A DNA stretch of 24,732 bases from a virus. Both the position numbers and the translations under genes were made by a program. Positions 585 to 24,732 of this stretch are shown here, one piece after another. The notes under the pieces were generated by a model. That model saw only the letters and a program-made list of their open reading frames with translations. It did no database searches and was not told where the DNA came from. Each line of letters starts with the position of its first letter. Within the stretch, counting starts at the first letter, position 1. Where the stretch lies: IMG/VR virus record IMGVR_UViG_3300035156_000043, positions 1 to 24,732 of that record; one strand, 5' to 3'.

Positions 585-1004
585 TCAGGCAAGTGAGACT
601 TCAAGCCGCTTACCCAAAGCCTTAGCCGCTTGCTCAACGAAATCGAGCTTCGACGCGTGGCCAAGATCGAACAGTCGATCAACCTGGGGAGTGTGTACGC
701 CCAGCAGCCGGGCCAGATCCGCTTTCCGCAGCTTCTGCGCGAACATTTCGTTCCAGATCAGGATCTTCGCCTCAGACAAGGCCGGCAGCGCCACGGTGCG
801 TTGCCCGGTCTCGGCGGCAGATGGAAGCGGTACAGGCTGGCGCCCGTCGAAGTAGGCCTGCAGCGCTGTTTCGATCGCATCGACAGCGTTGCGCAGCGCG
901 TCTTCCTCGTCATCGCCAACCGAGTTCACGGTAGGGAAATCAGGGAAGCCGACGAGGATAGTTCCGTTGGTGTCCGGTTGCAGGGTTACAGGGTAGTTCA
1001 TCAT
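585..1004 (-). CDS. hicB: HicB-family antitoxin
   Basis: This 139-aa protein neutralises the HicA RNA-cleaving toxin and represses its own operon. Residues 1 to about 70 have the HicB partial RNase-H-like fold signature: a YPV strand, GFPDFP, a DDEEDAL acidic stretch, a long helix and a PLPSA end. Residues about 75-139 form an HTH domain (KADLARLLGVHTPQVDRLFD), the DNA-binding part of long HicB proteins. It lies 97 nt downstream of hicA on the minus strand. Two ATGs stand in tandem (1004 and 1001). The ribosome binding site GAGGAAC (1007-1013) is better spaced for the second, which would give 138 aa. It is antisense to the phage late operon and looks intact. Confidence 0.93.
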   Translation of the reverse strand: MMNYPVTLQPDTNGTILVGFPDFPTVNSVGDDEEDALRNAVDAIETALQAYFDGRQPVPLPSAAETGQRTVALPALSEAKILIWNEMFAQKLRKADLARLLGVHTPQVDRLFDLGHASKLDFVEQAAKALGKRLEVSLA

Positions 1005-1080
1005 AAGTTCCTCATTGGAAGTGTGTCGCCATTGCTCGGTTTAGCAAGGTGGTGATTCATGATTCAGCGAGTAGCAGAGA

Positions 1081-1096
1081 AACCCCTTGCGGGGCC
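1081..1096 (-). other. GCAA-tetraloop hairpin between hicA and hicB
   Basis: Just after the hicA stop codon the minus strand reads CCCC-GCAA-GGGG followed by TTTC. The stem is only 4 bp (about 1083-1094) with a stable tetraloop and a weak T tract. It may be a partial terminator or an mRNA-stabilising hairpin that sets the hicA to hicB ratio. It is too short to call a proven terminator. Confidence 0.35.
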
Positions 1097-1101
1097 TCTC
1101 C

Positions 1102-1281
1102 TCACTTCAGTTTCAGATCCTTCAAGATTTTGTTGTGGAGCCCAGTGCCTATTTCCTTTGCTCCGTGATCTGGGAAGGTGCTTCGTTCACCGTTCAGTTC
1201 GACGTTGAAGTGGCTGCCTTTGCCGGGAGTGAACTTCGCTCCTCTGCGCTCTAGCCACCGTCGAAACTCGCTGTATTTCAT
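1102..1281 (-). CDS. hicA: HicA-family mRNA interferase toxin
   Basis: This 59-aa protein is the toxin of the HicAB module, a small double-stranded-RNA-binding-like fold that cleaves mRNA in a translation-independent way. It starts MKYSEFRRWLERRGAKF and carries the characteristic GKGSH motif with the conserved catalytic histidine (His23), then a beta strand (FNVEL) and the typical FPDHGAKEIGTGLHNKILKDL end. Its length matches the family (about 60 aa). The start at 1281 is fixed by a strong AGGAGG (1285-1290, minus strand). It is first in the operon, with hicB downstream, and is transcribed from the promoter at 1310-1337 under presumed HicB control. Confidence 0.93.
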   Translation of the reverse strand: MKYSEFRRWLERRGAKFTPGKGSHFNVELNGERSTFPDHGAKEIGTGLHNKILKDLKLK

Positions 1282-1309: not shown

Positions 1310-1337
1310 ATTATACAACAGAAGTGTTGTGTGTCAA
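1310..1337 (-). promoter_or_regulatory. hicAB promoter
   Basis: Read on the minus strand: a perfect -35 TTGACA (1332-1337), a 16-nt spacer and a perfect -10 TATAAT (1310-1315). The hicA ribosome binding site and ATG follow about 20-30 nt downstream. This is the strongest sigma-70-type promoter seen in the window, so strong expression unless repressed is expected. Confidence 0.85.
1315..1330. promoter_or_regulatory. HicB operator candidate O1 (in promoter spacer)
   Basis: The palindrome ACAACA-GAAG-TGTTGT fills the spacer between the -35 and -10 boxes of the hicAB promoter. A bound repressor would block RNA polymerase directly. The arms are identical to those of a second copy at 1347-1362. 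Assignment to the HicB HTH domain is inferred from the autoregulation known for the family. Confidence 0.75.
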
Positions 1338-14286: not shown

Positions 14287-14352
14287 GCCAGCCGGCGCCG
14301 ATTTGACGGTGCTGGCTTTTACGCCGCGAGGTCATTCCTCGCGGTCTTTTTC
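14287..14352 (+). terminator. Tandem intrinsic terminators after the tail tube gene
   Basis: The first hairpin is GCCAGC (14287-14292) with GCTGGC (14311-14316), plus an inner GCCG/CGGT helix, followed by TTTT. The second is CCGCGAGG (14324-14331) with CCTCGCGG (14337-14344), a 5-nt loop and TCTTTTTC. Two terminators in a row between the tube and chaperone genes would sharply reduce read-through. Confidence 0.82.
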
Positions 14353-14384: not shown

Positions 14385-14840
14385 ATGGCAAAAGCTACCA
14401 AAATCGTCCTCGGCAAGCGTCCGCAGAACTTCAACAAGGAAGTGCAGTGCACCATGCTCGACGGTGCCCAGGGCTGCATGGAAGTCAACTATGTGTACCG
14501 CAGCCGCATCGAGCTGGCAGAGCTCACCGACGAACTGCAGACCAAGCTCAAGAACGAAGCGAACGCCGAGATCGAGCGCTTCAATGCCGCCGTCACCAAG
14601 GCAAAGGAAACCGCCGAGGCGATCCCCGAATTCTCGCTGACCCAGACCGAAATCGTGAAGCGTCAGTCGGCGATCAACGTCGAGTACATCATGAAGATCG
14701 TCAAAGGCTGGAACCTGGACGCCGACTTCGACAAGGACGGCGTGGCGGAACTGGTCGACACGCTGCCAGCGATGGCCGAGGCGATCAAGTCCGACTACCG
14801 CGCCGCCATCAACGAAGGCCGCCTGGGAAACTCCGTCTAA
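14385..14840 (+). CDS. Tail assembly chaperone G (zero-frame product)
   Basis: This 151-aa protein is the short form of the lambda-like G/GT chaperone pair, which coats the tape measure protein while the tail tube is built. It is mainly helical with acidic and basic residues (about residues 40-75, ELAELTDELQTKLKNEANAEIERF). Its start ATG 14385 follows GAAAGA. Near the end, codons GGA-AAC sit inside the slippery heptamer GGGAAAC (14825-14831), where some ribosomes shift to the -1 frame to make GT. Unshifted ribosomes stop at TAA 14838-14840. Confidence 0.82.
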   Translation: MAKATKIVLGKRPQNFNKEVQCTMLDGAQGCMEVNYVYRSRIELAELTDELQTKLKNEANAEIERFNAAVTKAKETAEAIPEFSLTQTEIVKRQSAINVEYIMKIVKGWNLDADFDKDGVAELVDTLPAMAEAIKSDYRAAINEGRLGNSV

Positions 14841-15157
14841 TCGCCGAAGCGATGTACACGCCGGGTCCGACAAAAAAGGACCTGGCCGAAATGGAAGCTG
14901 CCGGCCTCACGCTGGCGGACTTCGGCGAAAGCGTGGTCGAGATCTGGCCGGAGCACTGGGATGCCTACGTGCTGTTCGCCTACATGCGTACGCAGTGGCG
15001 CGCGGGCGGCATGGGTGTGATCGGGCTCGATTACGGCACGATGCATCGCAAGATGGATCGGATGAACCTAGACCAGGCGCAGTACGACGAGCTTGAGGCG
15101 GACATTCAAACCATGGAGTTCGCCGCCCTTGGCATTATGCATAGCCGGGATGACTAA
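14385..15157 (+). CDS. Tail assembly chaperone GT, -1 frameshift fusion
   Basis: The likely product joins residues 1-149 of G (through AAC 14829-14831) to the -1 frame starting at CTC 14831, giving about 257 aa and ending at 15157. The shifted part contains ESVVEIWPEHWDAYVLF and QWRAGGMGVIGLDY, features of DUF1799-type phage proteins, the T half of lambda-like GT. An ATG at 14852 could start T alone (101 aa), but no good ribosome binding site precedes it. GT links the chaperone to the tail tube subunits during assembly. A small TCGC-CGAA-GCGA hairpin begins 9 nt after the slippery site. Confidence 0.8.
14825..14831 (+). promoter_or_regulatory. Slippery heptamer GGGAAAC for -1 frameshift
   Basis: The zero-frame reading is CTG-GGA-AAC, so the heptamer is in the canonical X-XXY-YYZ phase. 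Both tRNAs re-pair after a -1 slip (GGG-AAA). It resembles the lambda GGGAAAG site. The frame is open for 108 codons after the slip. Confidence 0.82.
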
Positions 15158-15164
15158 GCGCCGG

Positions 15165-15192
15165 TTGCACCGTCCTTGCGCTGGTGTAAGAT
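15165..15192 (+). promoter_or_regulatory. Candidate promoter of the moron-like gene
   Basis: TTGCAC (15165-15170), a 16-nt spacer and TAAGAT (15187-15192) form a moderate sigma-70-like match (3/6 and 4/6). They lie directly upstream of a strong ribosome binding site and ATG at 15217, giving a short leader. It is plausible but not strong. Confidence 0.45.
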
Positions 15193-15216
15193 TGCATTCT
15201 CATCATAGGAGGGGAT

Positions 15217-15591
15217 ATGCAGCGATTCATTCTGGCGACCGCGCTTTGCCTGGCGAGCGGATCCACCTTGGCGTTCGGCCTCGCGTGCGAGAGGCCCGAA
15301 TACCTGCAGCTCAAAACTGCAGATAAGGCCGAGTTACAGCAGGAGTTTTGCCGCACAACTCGCATGAATGGCATGAACTTGAAATTGCGGCAAAGTACAG
15401 AGGCAGGGATCTCCGAGTTACGCAACATGGGCGCAGATACCTCGAAGCATGCCGCCGAGAGTGACGAGTTATTGCAGGCGGCGCAATCGTGCTCGAAGGC
15501 GGCCGCCGAATACGCCGGCGCGCTTCAACGCCGATTCAAGTCCAAGGCGCCCTCAGCTAAGGTATGCACCTCGCCCGGACCCGGGATATGA
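15217..15591 (+). CDS. Secreted moron-like protein with signal peptide (124 aa)
   Basis: This gene is independent of the structural genes around it. It has a candidate promoter, a near-perfect ribosome binding site (AGGAGGGG at 15207-15214), its own terminator after the stop, and a typical signal peptide (MQRFILATALCLASGSTLA, cleavage near residue 19-20). The mature part has four cysteines (residues 24, 45, 92, 117), so two disulfides in the periplasm are possible. The rest is helical and charged (about 30-105). There is no clean lipobox. I recognise no family. By position and build it is probably a lysogenic-conversion gene; superinfection exclusion or a host envelope effect are options. Confidence 0.75.
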   Translation: MQRFILATALCLASGSTLAFGLACERPEYLQLKTADKAELQQEFCRTTRMNGMNLKLRQSTEAGISELRNMGADTSKHAAESDELLQAAQSCSKAAAEYAGALQRRFKSKAPSAKVCTSPGPGI

Positions 15592-15619
15592 CCTAGCACC
15601 AATTCAGCGACACACAACC

Positions 15620-15643
15620 AAGCCACCTTCGGGTGGCTTTTTT
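15620..15643 (+). terminator. Intrinsic terminator with TTCG tetraloop
   Basis: AAGCCACC (15620-15627), TTCG loop, GGTGGCTT (15632-15639) and a T-run make a classic efficient terminator. It ends the moron-like transcript just 15 bp before the tape measure start, so the tape measure gene needs read-through, antitermination or its own promoter. Confidence 0.88.
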
Positions 15644-15657
15644 ATTTGGGCCACGCC

Positions 15658-18600
15658 ATGACCGATATCGTCAACAACGCAACAATTCGAGTGGTGGCAG
15701 ACGCCTCGGGCGTGGAAGCTGGCTTGCGCCCGGCGGTCGACGCCGCAAACCGAACCGGCCGCGCGATGACGCAAACCGGTGAGCGGTCGGCGGCCGCCGC
15801 ACGCACAGTAGAGAATTCGCAGCGCAACATCATCGCCTCGATCCAGCGCACGACGATGGCAATGGAGGCCGGCGGCCGCGGCACCGCGAATTATTACGAT
15901 TCGTTGGCACGTAACCGCGGGGTTGATCCCGCCACGCTCACCCCCTACCTGAATCAGCTGCGCGCGGTCGAGGCGGCGCAGGCACAAGCCACCCAGGCAA
16001 CGCAAGCTCAAGCCGCGGCCGCGCGCGATCTCGCCCAGGCTCAGGCATCGAAGGAGTCGTTCCTGGCCGGTTTGCGCGAGCAGATTGCCTTGTTCGGTAG
16101 GTCGACCGAAGAAGTGCTGCGCTACCGCGCGGCGCAAGCTGGTGCCGCTCAGGAAGCTTCAATGCTGATCCTGCAGCTGCAAAACATGCGCGCCGCCCAG
16201 CAGCAAACTGAAGCAGCAGCGCGCGCGCTGGCCCAGGCGCAGCGTGAAGCCGTCCAGGCCGACGCGAGCAGAAATACCTTCCTCGACGGTCTGCGTGAAC
16301 AAATTGCTCTGTTCGGCCGTTCGACCGAAGAGGTGCACCGCTACCGTGCCGCCCAGCTCGGCGCAGCCAGCGCTGCCGAACCGCTGATTGCTCAGCTGCG
16401 AGACCTGCGCCTGGCGCAGGAGCAGCAGACCTATGCCACTCGAATGGAAGCGCAGGCGCAGCGCGAGCTGGCGCAGGTGGAGGCCTCCCGTACCTCATTC
16501 ATCAAGGGATTGGAACAGCAAGTTGCCGCCATTGGCAAGACGCGGGCAGAACTTCTCGCGCTGCAGGCTGCGCAGCTGGGCGTAGCCAACCAGGCAAAGC
16601 CTTTGATCGACCAGCTGCACGCGCAGGACCAAGCCTTTCGCAATGGCGGTATGTCTGCTGCGGCGATGAACGCTGCGCTGCGGGGCGTGCCTGCGCAGAT
16701 GACGGACATCATCGTCAGCCTGCAAGGTGGCCAGGCGCCGCTTACGGTGCTCCTGCAACAGGGCGGTCAGCTGCGCGATATGTTTGGAAGTGCCAGCGGA
16801 GCATTGCGCGCCCTTGGTGGCGCAGCCCTCGGCCTGATCACGCCCTTTACGGTGACCGCCGCCGCGGTCGGCGCATTGGTTTATGCCTACAAAGCGGGCC
16901 ATGACGAGTCAATCAATTACTCGCGCGCCCTCATCATGACAGGCAATTTCGCCGGCACCACTGCGGGCCAGCTGTCTGACATGGCAGCACGGATGAAGGA
17001 GATCAACGGTTCCCAAGGTGTTTCGGCCAAGGCCCTGACGACGCTGGCCAGCACCGGCGCGATCGCTGCAGATAGCTTGGAAAAATTCGGCACAGTGGCC
17101 GTCGACGCCCAGCGCGTGCTCGGCAAGAGCGTCGAGGACACGGCAAAAGAGTTTGCAGCACTCGGGAAGGATCCGCTGACCGCACTCCGAGCGATGGGCG
17201 ACCAATTCGGCTTCGTCTCGACCGAGACGTATCGTGCTGTGAAAGCGGCACAGGAACAGGGCCGCATGATCGATGCGGCCCGCATCGCGCAGAATTCCTA
17301 CGCCGACGGCATCGCAAACCAGAAAGAAAAAGTGCTCGAAAGCCTTTCGGCCTGGGAGCGCGGCTGGAACGGCGTGAAGAAAGCGACGAGCGGGGCGTGG
17401 GATTCCTTTCTCGACTTTGCGAGCGGTCGGGAAGCGGGGCCTGACCAGCAGCTTGCGTTGCTGGATAAACAGCGTGAGGCCTGGCAGGCTCGGCTTGAGC
17501 GCCGGCAGAAGGTCCTCAGGACGCGTGACGGCGATAAGTACGATCCATCGACGGATCCGGACGTACTGGCGGCCCAGGCGCAGCTGGCGGCAATCGAACG
17601 CACCACCGTGGCTATCAACAAGAAGGCGGCAGCATCCGACCAGGCTGCTAAGGACGAGGGCCTAAGGGTGCAGCGTGAGGCACTGCAGAGGGAGTGGGAC
17701 GACAAGCAGAAGATTCTGATGACCCGGGCGGAGCTGCGCGACAAAGCCTTGGCCGCAGCCCAAACTCGCGGCGCCGAACTCGGTGTTCCGCAGGCGGATA
17801 TCGATAAGCAGTTGATGGCGATCCGTCGTGAATACAACGATGTCTACGTGGCCGGGATCGACGCCAGCATGACGTCGCTGCGGAAGCGTGGCGAAGTGGA
17901 GGAAGTGCTGGCCCAGCGCGCGCTGGCACAAATCCAAGCGCAGCGCGACGCTGGCGAAATCACGGAAGACGAAGCTCTTCGGCGTACGGCCGCTACGGAC
18001 CTGGCTATTATTGACGGGCAGAAGCGCGGCCTGCAGCAACAGCTTGCAATGACCCGACAGAAGATCGGTAGTCAACGCGAGCAACTTGATCTTCAGGGCC
18101 AAATCGATAAAAAAGACGAAGAACGTTCCAGCCGACAAAATAAGCTGGAGATCGACTTGGGCACCGCCCAACGGAACCGCTCGCAGGCCAGCCAGGATCT
18201 GTACATGCAAGGCGTCAAGGCGGCCGCCGCCGAGCTCACCGGCCTGGAAGACCAAGTGAAGGCGCAGCAGCTGGCCAACGAAGAGATCGGGCTGTCGAAG
18301 GAAGGAGTGGCAGCACTCCAGGCCGAGCGCATGCTTGCAATCGCGACCTTGAAAGAGGAGACCGCCGCACAGTTCGAGGCGCAGGAAGCCGGCAGCGTTA
18401 CCGCTGGGATCTACCGCCGCCAGGCCGAAGAGTTGCGCAAGCTCGCCACCCTCAAGCAGCAGGGCGCGATCAACGAAGGGATCTCGGACGCCAATAAAAA
18501 GGCGAAAGACAGCTTGAAGGAGTTTCTGGACCCGGCCCGGGCCCAGACGTTCGGGGAGGCGCTGCGCGAGGCATTTGGCACTGCGGGTGACTCGATCACC

Positions 18601-20976
18601 AAGATGACCGGCGCTTTGGACGCATTCGGCAAGCGTCAGGCAAAGATCGCAGAAGAGCGCGGTAATGCTGACCTGCTGTTCCGGAACGGCAAGATCGATG
18701 AAATCCAGCACTTGGAATACGTCGAGAAGCTCAACGATGAGAGCGCCAAGAATCGCATGGCTGGCTATGGCGCCATGGCGAGCGCGGCCGCCGGATTCTT
18801 CGGCGAGCAGAGCAAGGGCTACCAAGTCCTGATGGCAGTGTCGAAGGTGTTCCACGCGGCCGAGCTGGCCATGACGCTGGCCGAGCTGGTACCGAAAGGT
18901 ATTTCGGCGGTGCTGAGCCAAGGCTCGGGCGATCCATATACCGCGTTTGGCCGCATGGCGGCGATGGCTGCGATCGTCGCCGGTCTGGGCGTTGCCATCG
19001 GTTCTGTCGGCAGCGGCGGGGTGAGTCTGTCCGAATCGCGCCAGAAAACCCAGGGCACCGGGTCCGTGCTCGGGTCGGACGATAAGTCCGAGTCGATCGC
19101 GAAGTCGCTTGAAATAATGGAGTCGCTGGCTTCGAAGGAGCTGGGCATCAGTACCGGCATGCTGATGTCCCTGCGCAACATCGAGGCGGGGATCGGGCAG
19201 TTCGCCTCCTTGCTGGTGCGCACTACTGGTGTCTCGGGCGATTTTGGCGCCGGCATCGCGACGCGCGGCAGCGCCGACGCTTTCGGTCGATCAACGGCAG
19301 GCGTGCTATTAACCGGCGGTGTCATCGGGCTGGCTCTCGACAAGATTACCGGTGGCTGGGTTGGAAAGATCACTGGGTCAGTGCTGAACTCCATCTTCGG
19401 CGGCAAGAAAACTGTCGAGGACACCGGTTTCACTATGGGCCCGGCCAACTTCGGGAACATTCTGACCGGAGGCGTCAGCGCATCGCAGTATGCCGACATC
19501 AAGAAGGATGGCGGGTGGTTCCACAGCGATAAGCGCTCGACCCAGCTTGAAGGGATCGGCGCCGAGGGTAATCGTCAGATCAGCACGATCCTGACGTCGC
19601 TTTACGACACCGTGTTCCAGGCCGGCGAGCTCCTGCAGGTCAACGGTGACGAATTTACTGCGCGCCTGAACAGCTTCGTTGTCGACATCGGCAAGGTGAG
19701 CTTGAAAGGCAAAACCGGGGAGGAGATCCAGAAAGAGCTGTCGGCTGTGTTCTCGAAGGTCGGCGACGATCTCGCCAGCTTTGGCATTGCTGGGATTACC
19801 GAATTCCAGCAGGTTGGCGAGGGTGCACTGGAGACCTTGGCACGCGTTGCGTCGAACTATGCAGGCCTGGACGCAGTCTTGAACAGCATCGGCAAGTCGT
19901 TCGGGGCAACCGGGATCGCGAGCCTTGCTGCACGCGAAGAGCTGCTTTCCATGGCGGGCGGCATCGACGAGCTGGCGAGCCAAGCATCGTCGTTCGCCGA
20001 GAATTACCTGACCGAGGCGGAGCGGCTGGCGCCGGTGCAGAAGTATGTCACCGCACAGCTGGCGGAGATGGGCCTGACCTCCCTTCAGTCGCGCGATGCG
20101 TTCAAGCAGCACGTGCTGGGCCTTGATCTCACGATCGCGGCAGAGCGAGAGCAGTACGCGCAACTGATGTCGCTGCAGGAGGCGTTCGCCAAGGTGTTTC
20201 CGGCGATTGAGGATGCCACCATGTCGCTGACCGATGCGAAATCAGCGCTGGCAGATGCATACAACGCCGAGACCGATGCGGTCGACGCAACCATCAACCG
20301 GATGCGCTCGTTCGCCTCGAGCTTGAAGACCCTGCGCGACAACGCGTTGCTGGGTGGTCTTTCTCCGCTTTCGCCGCAACAGAAATATGCGGAGGCAAAG
20401 GCTCAGTACGAAGCTGTGCTGGCCGCGGCGCGAGGCGGCGATGAGGCAGCCCAGTCGCAGTATCAGGGCGCATTCAATGCGTTCCTGACTGCCTCCAGGG
20501 AGGTGTTCGCCAGCAGCAGCCAATATCAGGTCGACTTCGCCTACGCGCAGGCGGCCACGGAGGAGGCGGCACGCTGGGCTGAGTACCAGGTCGATGTCGG
20601 CAAGGCGCAGCTGGATGTCCTCAAGTTACAGGTGTCCGGAATCCTCGACGTCAATAAATCCGTGCTCTCAGTGCGGGAGGCCTTGGTTCAGTACAACGAA
20701 GCTCAGGGACGGCAGGCGGGCCCAGCCGCGATGCCAGCATCTGCGCAGATCCCGTTCTATGCGTCGGAAGGCCGGACAAACAACGCGGCGCTTGCGAATG
20801 AGATGTCTGCGGTGCGGCAAGAGCTGGCAGGGCTGCGGGCTGACCAACAGGTGCAGACCGGCGATCAGATCCAGGCACAGGCAACTGCGACCAGCGAATC
20901 TGCGGAAGTGATTGCGAAGGCCGTCCGGCAGCCGTGGAAATTTGCTGGTGACGAAACAAGGGTTGCTCCTCAATGA
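15658..20976 (+). CDS. Tail tape measure protein
   Basis: This 1772-aa protein sets tail length and carries DNA-ejection functions. Near residues 340-440 it has the core of the TMP_2 / lambda-H-like family (SAAAMNAALRGVPAQMTDIIVSL, then PLTVLLQQGGQLRDMFG). Long coiled-coil parts follow, and hydrophobic segments lie near 381-411, 1099-1119 and 1215-1245. Residues 130-348 are three 73-residue repeats. The start ATG 15658 is preferred; TTG 15646 would add four residues next to the terminator. By the family rule of about 1.5 angstrom per residue the tail would be near 265 nm (rough inference). It overlaps the next gene by 4 bp. Confidence 0.93.
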   Translation: MTDIVNNATIRVVADASGVEAGLRPAVDAANRTGRAMTQTGERSAAAARTVENSQRNIIASIQRTTMAMEAGGRGTANYYDSLARNRGVDPATLTPYLNQLRAVEAAQAQATQATQAQAAAARDLAQAQASKESFLAGLREQIALFGRSTEEVLRYRAAQAGAAQEASMLILQLQNMRAAQQQTEAAARALAQAQREAVQADASRNTFLDGLREQIALFGRSTEEVHRYRAAQLGAASAAEPLIAQLRDLRLAQEQQTYATRMEAQAQRELAQVEASRTSFIKGLEQQVAAIGKTRAELLALQAAQLGVANQAKPLIDQLHAQDQAFRNGGMSAAAMNAALRGVPAQMTDIIVSLQGGQAPLTVLLQQGGQLRDMFGSASGALRALGGAALGLITPFTVTAAAVGALVYAYKAGHDESINYSRALIMTGNFAGTTAGQLSDMAARMKEINGSQGVSAKALTTLASTGAIAADSLEKFGTVAVDAQRVLGKSVEDTAKEFAALGKDPLTALRAMGDQFGFVSTETYRAVKAAQEQGRMIDAARIAQNSYADGIANQKEKVLESLSAWERGWNGVKKATSGAWDSFLDFASGREAGPDQQLALLDKQREAWQARLERRQKVLRTRDGDKYDPSTDPDVLAAQAQLAAIERTTVAINKKAAASDQAAKDEGLRVQREALQREWDDKQKILMTRAELRDKALAAAQTRGAELGVPQADIDKQLMAIRREYNDVYVAGIDASMTSLRKRGEVEEVLAQRALAQIQAQRDAGEITEDEALRRTAATDLAIIDGQKRGLQQQLAMTRQKIGSQREQLDLQGQIDKKDEERSSRQNKLEIDLGTAQRNRSQASQDLYMQGVKAAAAELTGLEDQVKAQQLANEEIGLSKEGVAALQAERMLAIATLKEETAAQFEAQEAGSVTAGIYRRQAEELRKLATLKQQGAINEGISDANKKAKDSLKEFLDPARAQTFGEALREAFGTAGDSITKMTGALDAFGKRQAKIAEERGNADLLFRNGKIDEIQHLEYVEKLNDESAKNRMAGYGAMASAAAGFFGEQSKGYQVLMAVSKVFHAAELAMTLAELVPKGISAVLSQGSGDPYTAFGRMAAMAAIVAGLGVAIGSVGSGGVSLSESRQKTQGTGSVLGSDDKSESIAKSLEIMESLASKELGISTGMLMSLRNIEAGIGQFASLLVRTTGVSGDFGAGIATRGSADAFGRSTAGVLLTGGVIGLALDKITGGWVGKITGSVLNSIFGGKKTVEDTGFTMGPANFGNILTGGVSASQYADIKKDGGWFHSDKRSTQLEGIGAEGNRQISTILTSLYDTVFQAGELLQVNGDEFTARLNSFVVDIGKVSLKGKTGEEIQKELSAVFSKVGDDLASFGIAGITEFQQVGEGALETLARVASNYAGLDAVLNSIGKSFGATGIASLAAREELLSMAGGIDELASQASSFAENYLTEAERLAPVQKYVTAQLAEMGLTSLQSRDAFKQHVLGLDLTIAAEREQYAQLMSLQEAFAKVFPAIEDATMSLTDAKSALADAYNAETDAVDATINRMRSFASSLKTLRDNALLGGLSPLSPQQKYAEAKAQYEAVLAAARGGDEAAQSQYQGAFNAFLTASREVFASSSQYQVDFAYAQAATEEAARWAEYQVDVGKAQLDVLKLQVSGILDVNKSVLSVREALVQYNEAQGRQAGPAAMPASAQIPFYASEGRTNNAALANEMSAVRQELAGLRADQQVQTGDQIQAQATATSESAEVIAKAVRQPWKFAGDETRVAPQ
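16045..16701 (+). repeat. Three exact-length 219-bp (73-aa) tandem repeats in tape measure gene
   Basis: Units start at 16045, 16264 and 16483, each 219 bp with no indels. Units 1 and 2 share a 15-residue block (LREQIALFGRSTEEV) with many silent differences, and unit 3 is more diverged (LEQQVAAIGKTRAEL). This is protein-level conservation of an old duplication, likely a regular coiled-coil ruler segment. Confidence 0.88.
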
Positions 20977-22451
20977 CAGATGCTCAATTTACGACCTGGC
21001 TGCAGAGCCAGGCGGCGTACCGTGTCGTCCTCATCGAGGCCGCGGTCCAGATCGGTGGCGTGGAGTCCGTCGTCTACATGGCGACGAAACCATTCACCAC
21101 CGGTGCGGCCGATACGCCGGCAAATACCTCGTACCTCCCGATCGCCACTGTCGGCACGCTGTTCACCGAGCAGCTGTCGCTGGAAGGTGACGGCGCGCTT
21201 TCGGCCGGCGTACTGGAGATCGACAACACCGGCGGCGCGCGCGACATCTGGGCGGATGCTTCCTACGTCTGGACCAACCGCGCGATCAAGGCCTACATCG
21301 GTGACCTGCGCTGGCCTCGCTCGGACTTCCGCATGGTCTTCAACGGGATCGTGGCCGACATCGCGCCGCGCGGCCGCAACAAGCTGGGCCTGAAGCTGCG
21401 CGACAAGCTGCAGCGCCTGGACACGGCGCTCAGCGAAGCGAAGATTGGCGGCACTGGTGAGAACCAGGATGTGCTGCGCCCGGTGGCGTTCGGGCAGGTA
21501 TTCAACGCGACCCCAGTGCGGATCAGCAATGGGACGCTCGAGTATCAGGGGCATGTTGGTCAAATCGACGGTTCGATCGAGGCGCGCGACAACGCAGCCC
21601 CGGTCAGCTACACGACGAACGCGGCCACCGGCGTCATCACGCTGGACGATGCGCCGGCGGGCGCCGTCACCCTCTCCATGCGTGGCGACAGCGCCGGCGG
21701 CTATCGCGAAACGGTCGCCTCGATCGTCAAGCGCATCGTCACCGGCTACGGCAAGGCATCCGACCGCTTCACGGACGACGACCTCGACCTGGTCAGCCTG
21801 AGCGCGTTTGATTCGGCGAACCAGCAGGGCGTCGGCCTTTATGCGACGGACCGGCTGAACGTGCTGCCAGCGTGCCAGTCGCTGACGGGCAGCATCGGCG
21901 CCCAGCTGGTGATGTCGCGCCTGGGCAAGCTCCGCATCATCAAGGTCGCGCTGCCGGGAACGGGCACGCCGTTCGTGATCCGGCCGGAGCACATGGTCGA
22001 TGACACGCTGCAGCCGACTGGCCGCACCACCGCAGTCGGCGCCGTCAAGCTCGGCTTCTGCAAGAACTGGACGGTCCAGGACGCCGGCACGCTGGCGGGC
22101 ATTCCCGACCGGCACAAGGATCTGTTCTCCCAGGAGTGGCGCACCACCACGAAATCGGATGCGGCCACCATCGCCAAGTTCAAGCTCAACGCCGAGCCGA
22201 TCCAGCAGGACACGCTCCTGCTCACCCGGGCGGAAGCGGAAGCGGAGGCGCAGCGCCGTCTCGACTTGTGGAAGGTGCCGCGCACCACGTATGAGTTCGA
22301 TGGGCTACCCGAGCTGCTGCAGCTCGAGCTCGGCCAGGCCGTGACCGTCTTCAGCCCGCGCTTCGGCATGGCAGCTGGCGTCTCCGGCATCGTTATTTCA
22401 CTCGCGCCCGACTGGAACACCGGGCGCGTCAAAGTAGGGTTTCTCGTATGA
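20973..22451 (+). CDS. Tail tip / baseplate hub-like protein
   Basis: This 492-aa protein lies directly after the tape measure gene (ATGA overlap at 20973), where distal tail or hub proteins are encoded. It starts MTDAQFTTWLQSQAAYRVVLIEAAVQ. The body is beta-rich with SLEGDGALSAGVLEIDN, AYIGDLRWPRSDFRMVFNGIVADIAPRG and a C-terminal beta barrel-like region (GQAVTVFSPRFGMAAGVSGIVISL). The middle holds a VASIVKRIVTGYG helix. I infer that it closes the tail tube and carries the long fibre of the next gene. The separate M, L, K and I genes of lambda are not seen. Confidence 0.6.
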   Translation: MTDAQFTTWLQSQAAYRVVLIEAAVQIGGVESVVYMATKPFTTGAADTPANTSYLPIATVGTLFTEQLSLEGDGALSAGVLEIDNTGGARDIWADASYVWTNRAIKAYIGDLRWPRSDFRMVFNGIVADIAPRGRNKLGLKLRDKLQRLDTALSEAKIGGTGENQDVLRPVAFGQVFNATPVRISNGTLEYQGHVGQIDGSIEARDNAAPVSYTTNAATGVITLDDAPAGAVTLSMRGDSAGGYRETVASIVKRIVTGYGKASDRFTDDDLDLVSLSAFDSANQQGVGLYATDRLNVLPACQSLTGSIGAQLVMSRLGKLRIIKVALPGTGTPFVIRPEHMVDDTLQPTGRTTAVGAVKLGFCKNWTVQDAGTLAGIPDRHKDLFSQEWRTTTKSDAATIAKFKLNAEPIQQDTLLLTRAEAEAEAQRRLDLWKVPRTTYEFDGLPELLQLELGQAVTVFSPRFGMAAGVSGIVISLAPDWNTGRVKVGFLV

Positions 22452-24732
22452 GCGGAGTTCTGAACGACTGCGACGCGCTGCTGCAGGGCGCCGCGGTACG
22501 CATCCTGAATCCGAAGGATGCGTTCATAAACCTGACCCCTAGCGGCCCGGGTTTCCACATGAACGGCGCCGGCGTCGTCGACATTGCAGCCGTCAGGGTC
22601 ACGGCAGACCTGATCGCGCTTGAGGGAGACATCGACTTCACCGTCCAGGGCGGCACTCTGTCCAACGTGACCGCGCGCAGCGTCGACGTCAACTTCACGA
22701 CCGGGACCGCGATCTTGACCGCTACTGTGGTCACGAATGGGGAAACCTTCGGTCGTAGCTGCGTTATCCCTGTCGTGCGGGATGGCGCGCCCGGCCAGCC
22801 CGTGTACACGTGGATCAAGTACGCCGACACCGCAGCCGGCGCTGGTCTCTCGGACGACCCAGTCGGCAAGGCCTATATTGGCCTTGCCCACAACAAGCCA
22901 ACGGCCACCGAATCGACGACCCCCGCCGACTACACCTGGGCGCTAATGAAGGGCAGCGACGGTCTGCCAGGCACGAAAGGTGCCGACGGCATCACCTATT
23001 ACACCTGGATCAAGTACGCCGACCAGGCCGATGGAACCGGCCTCTACGACACGCCAAACGCGAATACCCTATACATCGGCATCGCAGTCAACCGCCTGAG
23101 CGCAACCGAGAGCACGACGAAGACCGACTACGTCTGGTCCCGCTTTAAGGGCGAGCAGGGTGTGGCCGGCGCGGTCACGTACACGTGGATCAAATATGCG
23201 GACACGGCCGCCGGCGTCGGCCTGTCCGATGACCCGACCGGAAAAGCGTACATCGGTTTTGCCTACAACAAGTCCACTGCGACCGAGTCGACGACGGCCA
23301 CGGATTACACCTGGTCGCTCATCAAAGGTACCGATGGCCAGCCAGGTGGCAAGGGCGCGGACGGCGCCACGCTCTACACGTGGATCAAATATTCGGATGC
23401 CGCGGACGGTACCGGGCTATACGACACCCCGACCGCCGGCACGCTGTACATCGGGATCGCCACGAACAAAAGCACGGCGACCGAGAGCACCGTGAAAACG
23501 GATTACGTGTGGTCGAAGTTCAAAGGAGACCAGGGCGTGCAGGGCCCGACGACCTACACCTGGGTAAAGTATGCCGACAGCTCCGCCGGCGCCGGCCTGA
23601 GCGACGATCCGACGGGCAGGGCCTATATCGGCTTCGCCTATAACAAGTCGACTGCGACGGAGAGCACCACCGCCACCGATTACACATGGTCGCTGATCAA
23701 AGGCACGGACGGGCAGCCCGGTGGCAAAGGGTCTGACGGGCAGACGCTGTACACCTGGATCAAGTATTCGGACAACGCCGATGGAACGGGTTTGTATGAC
23801 ACCCCAACAGCGAGCACTCAGTACCTGGGCATCGCGGTCAACAAAACCACCACCACGGAGAGCACGGTCAAGACTGACTACGTGTGGTCGAAGTTCCGCG
23901 GCGCCGATGGCGTCGGCACCGCCGGCATGCGCGGGGCCGGCCACTACTACGCGGCTGGCTCTGCCTGGTCGGATGGGGTCGCTGACGCTGCTACTCCCGA
24001 CGGTAATGTCGTCGGCGACGTCGTCACCATCTCGAGCAGCACCTTCGTCATGGAAAAGCGCTGGACGGGCACGGCCTGGGTGGACAATGGCGTCGTCGTC
24101 AACGGCAAGCTGATCGTGCCGGAGTCGATCCTGACTTCTGCACTTGCTGCTGGTGCCGTCACGGCGGGGAAGATCGCAGCTGGCGCCGTCAGCGCGAACA
24201 GCATTATCGTCACAGGCGACCAGAACAACCTGATCCGTGACCCCCAGTTCAAAGACCTGACATGGTGGGGACTGACCGGAAGGACGACGGAGGGGATCAG
24301 CATTGGCCGCTGGGCGGATGCGCAGCAACCAACACGCTGGAAGCACGGTGTCTCCGTCTACCTCGGTGCGACCACTGTTAGCAATGAACTTGTGGTCACC
24401 AGAACGCAAACGATGCCGATCGTTCCAGGTGCCACTTATCTGGTTGAGTATCAGGTTGGATTTAGTAGCGATTTCAATGGTGACCTGTCTATCTGGTTGC
24501 ACACCTACAATTCCAATGCAAACACGCTAGGTCCAACCCTACCGGGCGGGGGTGTGCCGAACAGCGGATATTTTTTCAATGGCAACGGTGACCCTATCCA
24601 ATACCCAAGCAACAGCCGGGGCGGTCAGGACGTCGTGAAATACTTCACGGTTCCGGCCAATAACGCTGTAGTCGGTTGCCAGTTCATCATCATGCGTCAA
24701 GTCCGCGCCGGCACTTGCGAGATTGGCGGCTT
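22448..24732 (+). CDS. Long tail fibre / host-specificity protein (5' part)
   Basis: The ORF starts at ATG 22448 (overlapping the previous stop) and is still open at the window end after 761 codons. Residues 1-118 form a beta-rich attachment domain (ILNPKDAFINLTPSGPG, then a strand series). Residues about 120-494 are three 125-aa super-repeats, each with two related units (YTWIKYAD ... TATEST ... DYxWS) joined by collagen-like Gly-x-y stretches. A low-complexity segment (GAVTAGKIAAGAVSANSI, about 570-590) precedes a beta-sandwich, carbohydrate-binding-like domain (NLIRDPQFKDLTWWG) that continues to the end. It probably contacts the host surface. Confidence 0.8.
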   Translation, partial: MSGVLNDCDALLQGAAVRILNPKDAFINLTPSGPGFHMNGAGVVDIAAVRVTADLIALEGDIDFTVQGGTLSNVTARSVDVNFTTGTAILTATVVTNGETFGRSCVIPVVRDGAPGQPVYTWIKYADTAAGAGLSDDPVGKAYIGLAHNKPTATESTTPADYTWALMKGSDGLPGTKGADGITYYTWIKYADQADGTGLYDTPNANTLYIGIAVNRLSATESTTKTDYVWSRFKGEQGVAGAVTYTWIKYADTAAGVGLSDDPTGKAYIGFAYNKSTATESTTATDYTWSLIKGTDGQPGGKGADGATLYTWIKYSDAADGTGLYDTPTAGTLYIGIATNKSTATESTVKTDYVWSKFKGDQGVQGPTTYTWVKYADSSAGAGLSDDPTGRAYIGFAYNKSTATESTTATDYTWSLIKGTDGQPGGKGSDGQTLYTWIKYSDNADGTGLYDTPTASTQYLGIAVNKTTTTESTVKTDYVWSKFRGADGVGTAGMRGAGHYYAAGSAWSDGVADAATPDGNVVGDVVTISSSTFVMEKRWTGTAWVDNGVVVNGKLIVPESILTSALAAGAVTAGKIAAGAVSANSIIVTGDQNNLIRDPQFKDLTWWGLTGRTTEGISIGRWADAQQPTRWKHGVSVYLGATTVSNELVVTRTQTMPIVPGATYLVEYQVGFSSDFNGDLSIWLHTYNSNANTLGPTLPGGGVPNSGYFFNGNGDPIQYPSNSRGGQDVVKYFTVPANNAVVGCQFIIMRQVRAGTCEIGG
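22805..23929 (+). repeat. Three 375-bp super-repeats in the fibre gene
   Basis: Units begin at 22805, 23180 and 23555, exactly 375 bp apart. Each super-repeat is an A unit (65 aa) and a B unit (60 aa, starts at 23000, 23375, 23750). A and B differ (LSDDP versus LYDTP; GKAYIG versus xTLYIG) but share the same frame. The amino acids of super-repeats 2 and 3 are nearly identical while many third codon positions differ. Confidence 0.9.

What the first reader, a model, noticed from the sequence alone, without database searches (positions are those of the whole stretch)
15161..15645. Moron-like secreted protein gene wedged between the GT chaperone and the tape measure gene
Seen: promoter-like boxes, strong ribosome binding site, signal peptide, four cysteines in the mature part, own TTCG terminator. 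Known: morons are extra genes with their own transcription that often alter the host. The insertion site is notable because GT and the tape measure protein act together in assembly. Function unknown, perhaps exclusion of competing phages or a change to the host envelope.
Basis: partly seen in the sequence, partly recalled or inferred. Interest (0 to 1): 0.68.

Follow-up and report, generated by a model that had tools for sequence, protein, structure and literature searches.

The report
Secreted prophage gene at exclusion-gene site
A phage carries an optional gene for a small secreted protein, wedged next to its tape-measure gene at a spot where related phages carry different membrane or secreted proteins, some of them proteins that lock out competing phages, so it is probably a new kind of phage-exclusion protein.

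Summary
The gene is real: ORF 15217-15591, 124 aa, a predicted signal peptide cut after A19, four conserved cysteines, strong ribosome site, lying between the frameshifted G-T chaperone genes and the tape measure gene (TMP). It is under purifying selection (dN/dS about 0.06-0.2) and has no Pfam, PHROG or PDB relative. It is a true moron: close relatives with the same tail genes lack it, keep only a relic, or carry an unrelated gene at the same spot; a tree of T needs at least eight gains or losses. Every full-length relative found sits directly upstream of a TMP. A promoter-like motif (TGNKGTANNAT) is shared with unrelated genes at this site and occurs only twice in the window, the second time before hicA. 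The terminator is not the gene's own: many moron-less relatives have a hairpin there. All 14 kinds of ORF at the site have a hydrophobic stretch near their start. Three are Imm_superinfect proteins, and HK97 carries its exclusion protein gp15 there. Most likely function, inferred and untested: a periplasmic protein made by the lysogen that blocks DNA entry of superinfecting siphophages, probably at their TMP.

The parts
14385..14840 (+). G, tail assembly chaperone (Phage_TAC_4)
   Evidence: Pfam PF08748 E 6.2e-25
14825..14831 (+). GGGAAAC slippery heptamer for the -1 frameshift G to GT
   Evidence: reading frames checked; a slippery-like heptamer is near the junction in 127 of 128 related loci
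14840..15157 (+). T part of the GT chaperone (DUF1799)
   Evidence: Pfam PF08809 E 4.9e-27
15182..15192 (+). TGGTGTAAGAT, promoter-like motif shared by morons at this site (TAAGAT = -10-like, 15187-15192)
15207..15214 (+). Shine-Dalgarno AGGAGGGG
15217..15591 (+). moron gene, 124-aa secreted four-cysteine protein
   Evidence: homologues, dN/dS 0.06-0.21, AF2 model
15217..15273 (+). predicted signal peptide, residues 1-19, cleavage after TLA
   Evidence: direct reading; N-terminal hydropathy 1.80; A19 invariant
15274..15588 (+). mature protein, about 11.4 kDa, pI 8.8, predicted antiparallel helical hairpin
   Evidence: AF2 pLDDT 89.7, pTM 0.79; pI and mass
15620..15646 (+). TTCG hairpin and T-run before TMP; resident at the junction, not moron-specific
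15658..20976 (+). tape measure protein (ATG 15658; alternative TTG 15646)
   Evidence: Pfam TMP_2 E 2.2e-66

Best explanation
A moron: an optional cargo gene carried between T and TMP in temperate HK97-type siphophages, probably of Massilia-like bacteria. In the lysogen it is transcribed from its own -10-like promoter while the late operon is silent; the hairpin already present in front of TMP probably ends that transcript. The product is exported by Sec, loses its signal peptide and folds in the periplasm into a helical hairpin held by two disulfides. There it most likely causes superinfection exclusion by hindering the tape measure/DNA-entry conduit of an incoming related siphophage as it crosses the periplasm. 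Shown: gene, homologues, patchy presence, site, motif, purifying selection. Inferred: export, disulfides, expression in lysogeny, exclusion, TMP as the target.
For: Patchy presence with at least 8 forced changes on the T tree, and well-supported sister pairs with and without it; relics L004 and L072. Every full-length homologue sits directly upstream of a TMP, and so does a distant one (L121) in a different tail module. The same site carries HK97 gp15, reported as a superinfection exclusion protein escaped by hybrids with HK022 tail tube and TMP genes (PMC10883804), and PF14373 Imm_superinfect proteins in L076, L077 and phage YMC11/02/R656 (E 2.7e-11, 1.6e-10, 1.6e-18). All 14 kinds of site ORF have a hydrophobic segment within the first 60 aa, against 2 of 34 neighbouring virion genes. 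Shared promoter-like motif: 13 of 14 close homologues, 8 of 15 unrelated site ORFs, 0 of 209 control upstreams. Arc, AntA, KilA-N or antirepressor genes lie beside site ORFs in L128, L076 and phage PS-1. TMP is the reported target of Ltp, and is contacted by SNIPE during injection.
Against: No sequence or fold match to any known exclusion protein. No expression, export or phage-resistance data. The envelope bias may hold for morons in general. The HK97 result is one case, and Imm function is taken from a Pfam name. The motif was drawn partly by eye from these loci and no -35 box is evident. HK97 gp15 and Imm are membrane proteins, while this one is predicted soluble.
Confidence: 0.5

Rival explanations
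1. A lysogenic-conversion moron that alters the host envelope or stress response and has nothing to do with phage exclusion; the T-TMP gap is only a safe landing place.
For: Moron status and secretion do not by themselves specify exclusion; other site ORFs (Zn-ribbon/Pmp3-like, small TM proteins) have no known exclusion role. In Burkholderia phi1026b several different morons are expressed in lysogens (PMC2920897).
Against: Proteins of known or named exclusion families recur at exactly this site (HK97 gp15, Imm_superinfect).
Confidence: 0.25
2. A Spackle-like periplasmic inhibitor of a tail-borne or lysis muramidase: exclusion by keeping the incoming phage from digesting peptidoglycan.
For: Spackle is a small secreted alpha-helical disulfide protein (PMC7677548); one homologue has a weak phrog_1586 'spackle periplasmic' hit, E 0.21, chance level.
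Against: Pfam finds only TMP_2 (and a sub-threshold SHOCT hit) in the window's TMP, no muralytic domain. Spackle was not among the fold matches (inconclusive). Predicted two long helices here against short helices in Spackle.
Confidence: 0.1
3. A virion or late-operon gene product helping tail assembly or TMP export.
For: It lies in the late operon, on the same strand, between two genes of tail assembly.
Against: Most relatives with the same G, T and TMP lack it, and sister pairs differ. It has a signal peptide, and its motif is absent upstream of T and of TMP in empty junctions.
Confidence: 0.07

Closest known systems
HK97 gp15 (superinfection exclusion moron, YebO-like)
   Same: same place T | moron | terminator | TMP; small, envelope-directed by prediction, cargo of a temperate HK97-type phage
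   Different: 62-aa protein predicted to be in the inner membrane, PF13974 YebO; no cysteines and no sequence relation; upstream region lacks the motif
Imm_superinfect (PF14373, T4 Imm type) proteins at the same site in L076, L077, phage YMC11/02/R656
   Same: same T-TMP site; in L076 and L077 the same promoter-like motif
   Different: transmembrane proteins with a C-terminal zinc ribbon; no homology
P22 SieA
   Same: prophage-expressed exclusion gene that blocks DNA entry (PMC10883804); P22 sieA lies near arc and ant (own knowledge), and some homologues here lie beside Arc and antirepressor genes
   Different: inner membrane protein of a podovirus; not at a TMP gene; homology not tested
TP-J34 Ltp
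   Same: exported helical protein of a temperate siphophage; moron; targets TMP (PMC3952083)
   Different: lipoprotein of a Gram-positive host; acidic repeat domains against a basic mature protein here (pI 8.8)
T4 Spackle
   Same: secreted small helical disulfide protein in the periplasm (PMC7677548)
   Different: 75 aa mature, one disulfide, inhibits the gp5 lysozyme; virulent phage

Membership tests
moron (prophage cargo gene) | inserted between conserved phage genes, absent from close relatives | tested here: met
   most relatives have 20-62 bp or less between T and TMP; at least 8 changes on the T tree
moron (prophage cargo gene) | own promoter | tested here: inconclusive
   shared -10-like motif far above controls, no -35 box, no RNA data
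moron (prophage cargo gene) | own terminator | tested here: not met
   hairpin also before TMP in 29 of 65 empty junctions, including close relative L005; the moron claim rests on the other features, since a terminator need not be private to the gene
moron (prophage cargo gene) | expressed in the lysogen independently of late genes | not testable with these tools
   no transcriptome held
HK97 gp15 / YebO family | sequence homology (PF13974) | tested here: not met
   gp15 hits YebO E 1.2e-8; the window protein has no Pfam hit at E 1
HK97 gp15 / YebO family | position between T and TMP | tested here: met
Imm_superinfect (PF14373) | PF14373 domain above cut-off | tested here: not met
   no hit for the window protein or the 9 aligned homologues
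superinfection exclusion protein (by function) | blocks infection or DNA entry of a related phage when expressed | not testable with these tools
   needs an experiment
T4 Spackle family | sequence or fold similarity | tested here: inconclusive
   phrog_1586 E 0.21 in one member; not listed among fold matches
known anti-phage defence proteins (PADLOC) | profile match | tested here: not met
   no hit at E 1

The most novel reading that the evidence does not exclude
The T-TMP junction is a dedicated exchange site for superinfection-exclusion genes in beta- and gammaproteobacterial siphophages: unrelated envelope proteins are swapped behind a common lysogeny promoter next to the gene for the tape measure, and this four-cysteine periplasmic family is a new exclusion mechanism acting on TMP from the periplasm.
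Probability: 0.35. Interest if true: 0.75.

Novelty: new variant of a known kind. Interest (0 to 1): 0.56.

Why it matters
If right, gene position alone would predict exclusion proteins: small ORFs between T and TMP with an N-terminal hydrophobic stretch and the TGNKGTANNAT motif could be listed from sequence and tested. It would add a soluble periplasmic protein to the few exclusion proteins linked to the tape measure (HK97 gp15, Ltp), and make the open question of how such proteins stop siphophage DNA entry testable in a small disulfide-bonded protein.

Tried and rejected
Sigma-70 consensus scan found no promoter pair. Pfam, PHROGs, PADLOC and PDB-sequence searches of the protein found nothing usable. 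Fold searches: no Foldseek match below E 0.5; best VIA Z 9.3 to the seryl-tRNA synthetase helical arm, which for helical hairpins means only a common arrangement. 'Own terminator' rejected. 'Virion gene present in all relatives' rejected. Lipoprotein idea rejected: no lipobox before C24 in the family. tblastn of the protein in 50,697 phage records: none. About 790 genomes of Oxalobacteraceae and Burkholderiales: only two hold a copy, so the family is rare among sampled genomes. The weak Spackle profile hit (E 0.21) is treated as chance. A charge complement (moron pI 8.8, TMP C-terminus pI 4.7) was noted but not used as evidence.

Full report
What is there. The window is a 24.7-kb virus record with the late genes of an HK97-type siphophage: terminase, capsid, tail tube, G, T, tape measure. 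A GGGAAAC slippery heptamer at 14825-14831 joins G to T by a -1 frameshift. Between T (stop at 15157) and TMP (ATG 15658) lies one ORF, 15217-15591, of 124 codons, with a strong ribosome site. The N-terminus reads as a Sec signal peptide with a TLA cleavage site and no lipobox. The mature part has four cysteines.

It is a real, selected gene family. Homologues at 68-74% identity occur in Massilia sp. YIM B02769 (two copies) and in viral contigs; others lie at about 40%, and one distant relative at 23% lies in an Oxalobacteraceae prophage. dN/dS is 0.06-0.21 where dS is measurable. Three cysteines are invariant over 15 sequences and each has a fourth near the C-terminus. EY of the PEY motif is invariant, and RRFKxKP is nearly so. 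AlphaFold2 gives an antiparallel pair of long helices (mature pLDDT 89.7, pTM 0.79). No known family or fold is matched with significance.

It is optional. Of the T-TMP junctions surveyed, 65 are empty (T and TMP less than 120 bp apart), 14 carry this family, one has a relic of the signal peptide only (L004), and 22 carry another ORF or more; some of those 22 belong to a different tail architecture and were left out of the tree. On a tree of T the family needs 10 changes, at least 8 forced by well-supported branches; sister pairs differ (L003 with, L005 without; L123 with, L049 without; L065 with this family, L068 with an unrelated secreted protein). L072 keeps only its C-terminal end behind a different ORF. 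Five of nine related contigs carry an integrase, so these are probably temperate phages.

Promoter and terminator. The motif TGNKGTANNAT ends in a -10-like TANNAT box and begins 35-44 bp before the start codon. It is present in 13 of 14 close homologues and in 8 of 15 other sequences tested (unrelated ORFs of this site and HK97 gp15), but in 0 of 209 regions upstream of T or of TMP in empty junctions, and in 0.65% of random 75-mers. In 1.39 Mb of loci it occurs 41 times, 36 times before a ribosome site and an ORF; 24 different ORFs result, 22 of them T-TMP morons. In the window it occurs twice: here, and before hicA on the minus strand (two or more matches in 8 of 100 shuffles). Since the motif was partly drawn from these loci, the family count is circular; the counts for unrelated ORFs and controls are less so, although three of the unrelated ORFs had been seen beforehand. 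There is no -35 box. The hairpin before TMP is not the gene's own: 29 of 65 empty junctions have one by the same strict rule. HK97 also has an annotated terminator after gp15.

The site points to the function. The ORFs at this place fall into 14 kinds, HK97 gp15 included; all have a hydrophobic stretch in the first 60 residues, against 2 of 34 neighbouring virion genes. Among them are PF14373 Imm_superinfect proteins in L076, L077 and Pseudomonas phage YMC11/02/R656, all above the Pfam cut-off. HK97 gp15, reported as a superinfection exclusion protein, sits at exactly this place (PMC10883804). In L128, L076 and phage PS-1, Arc, AntA, KilA-N or antirepressor genes share the gap with the moron, as next to P22 sieA (own knowledge). 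Other work ties TMP to exclusion or defence: Ltp targets it (PMC3952083), Tab targets it (PMC10884400), SNIPE contacts it during injection (PMC13190303).

Mechanism, with its status. Shown: gene, family, optional presence, site, motif, selection. Inferred from sequence: export, disulfides, lysogenic expression. Inferred from company and literature: exclusion at the DNA-entry step, with TMP as the likely target. I put 0.9 on moron, about 0.5 on the whole chain.

Limits. Loci come mostly from one viral collection with many near copies. The envelope bias may hold for morons anywhere, which I did not test. Whether the protein acts on phages at all is not shown.

Noticed in passing
window 585-1281, minus strand: A hicA-hicB toxin-antitoxin pair (HicA_toxin E 2.5e-11, HicB-like E 9e-9); hicA has the only other copy of the moron promoter-like motif in the window (1310-1320)..
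   Followed up: partly
window 15620-15646 and the same place in 29 empty junctions (e.g. L005, L030, L080): A hairpin plus T-run just before TMP is a resident feature of these late operons even without a moron; it may lower TMP output relative to G and T. Another hairpin with T-run lies between tail tube gene and G (14323-14345)..
   Followed up: partly
L128, L129, L063/L064, L067, L069, L076, L115; phage PS-1 AP014684 34689-37439: One to three and a half kb of extra cargo (Arc-like repressors, AntA/KilA-N/Rha antirepressors, unknown ORFs) between T and the moron, a larger insertion hotspot like the P22 immI region..
   Followed up: partly
window 15658-17000 compared with L002, L003: The N-terminal part of TMP is made of degenerate repeats around GLREQIALFG; relatives have more strict copies and a TMP about 210-230 residues longer, which may set tail length..
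   Followed up: no
window 22448-24730: A large tail-tip or fibre ORF with repeated TYTWIKYADTAAGAGLSDD-type units (about 55-60 residues), cut by the end of the record; no Pfam hit..
   Followed up: no
G001 contigs C5 and C25 (L117, L118): Massilia sp. YIM B02769 holds two different copies of the moron, each at a contig start, so probably two related prophages..
   Followed up: no
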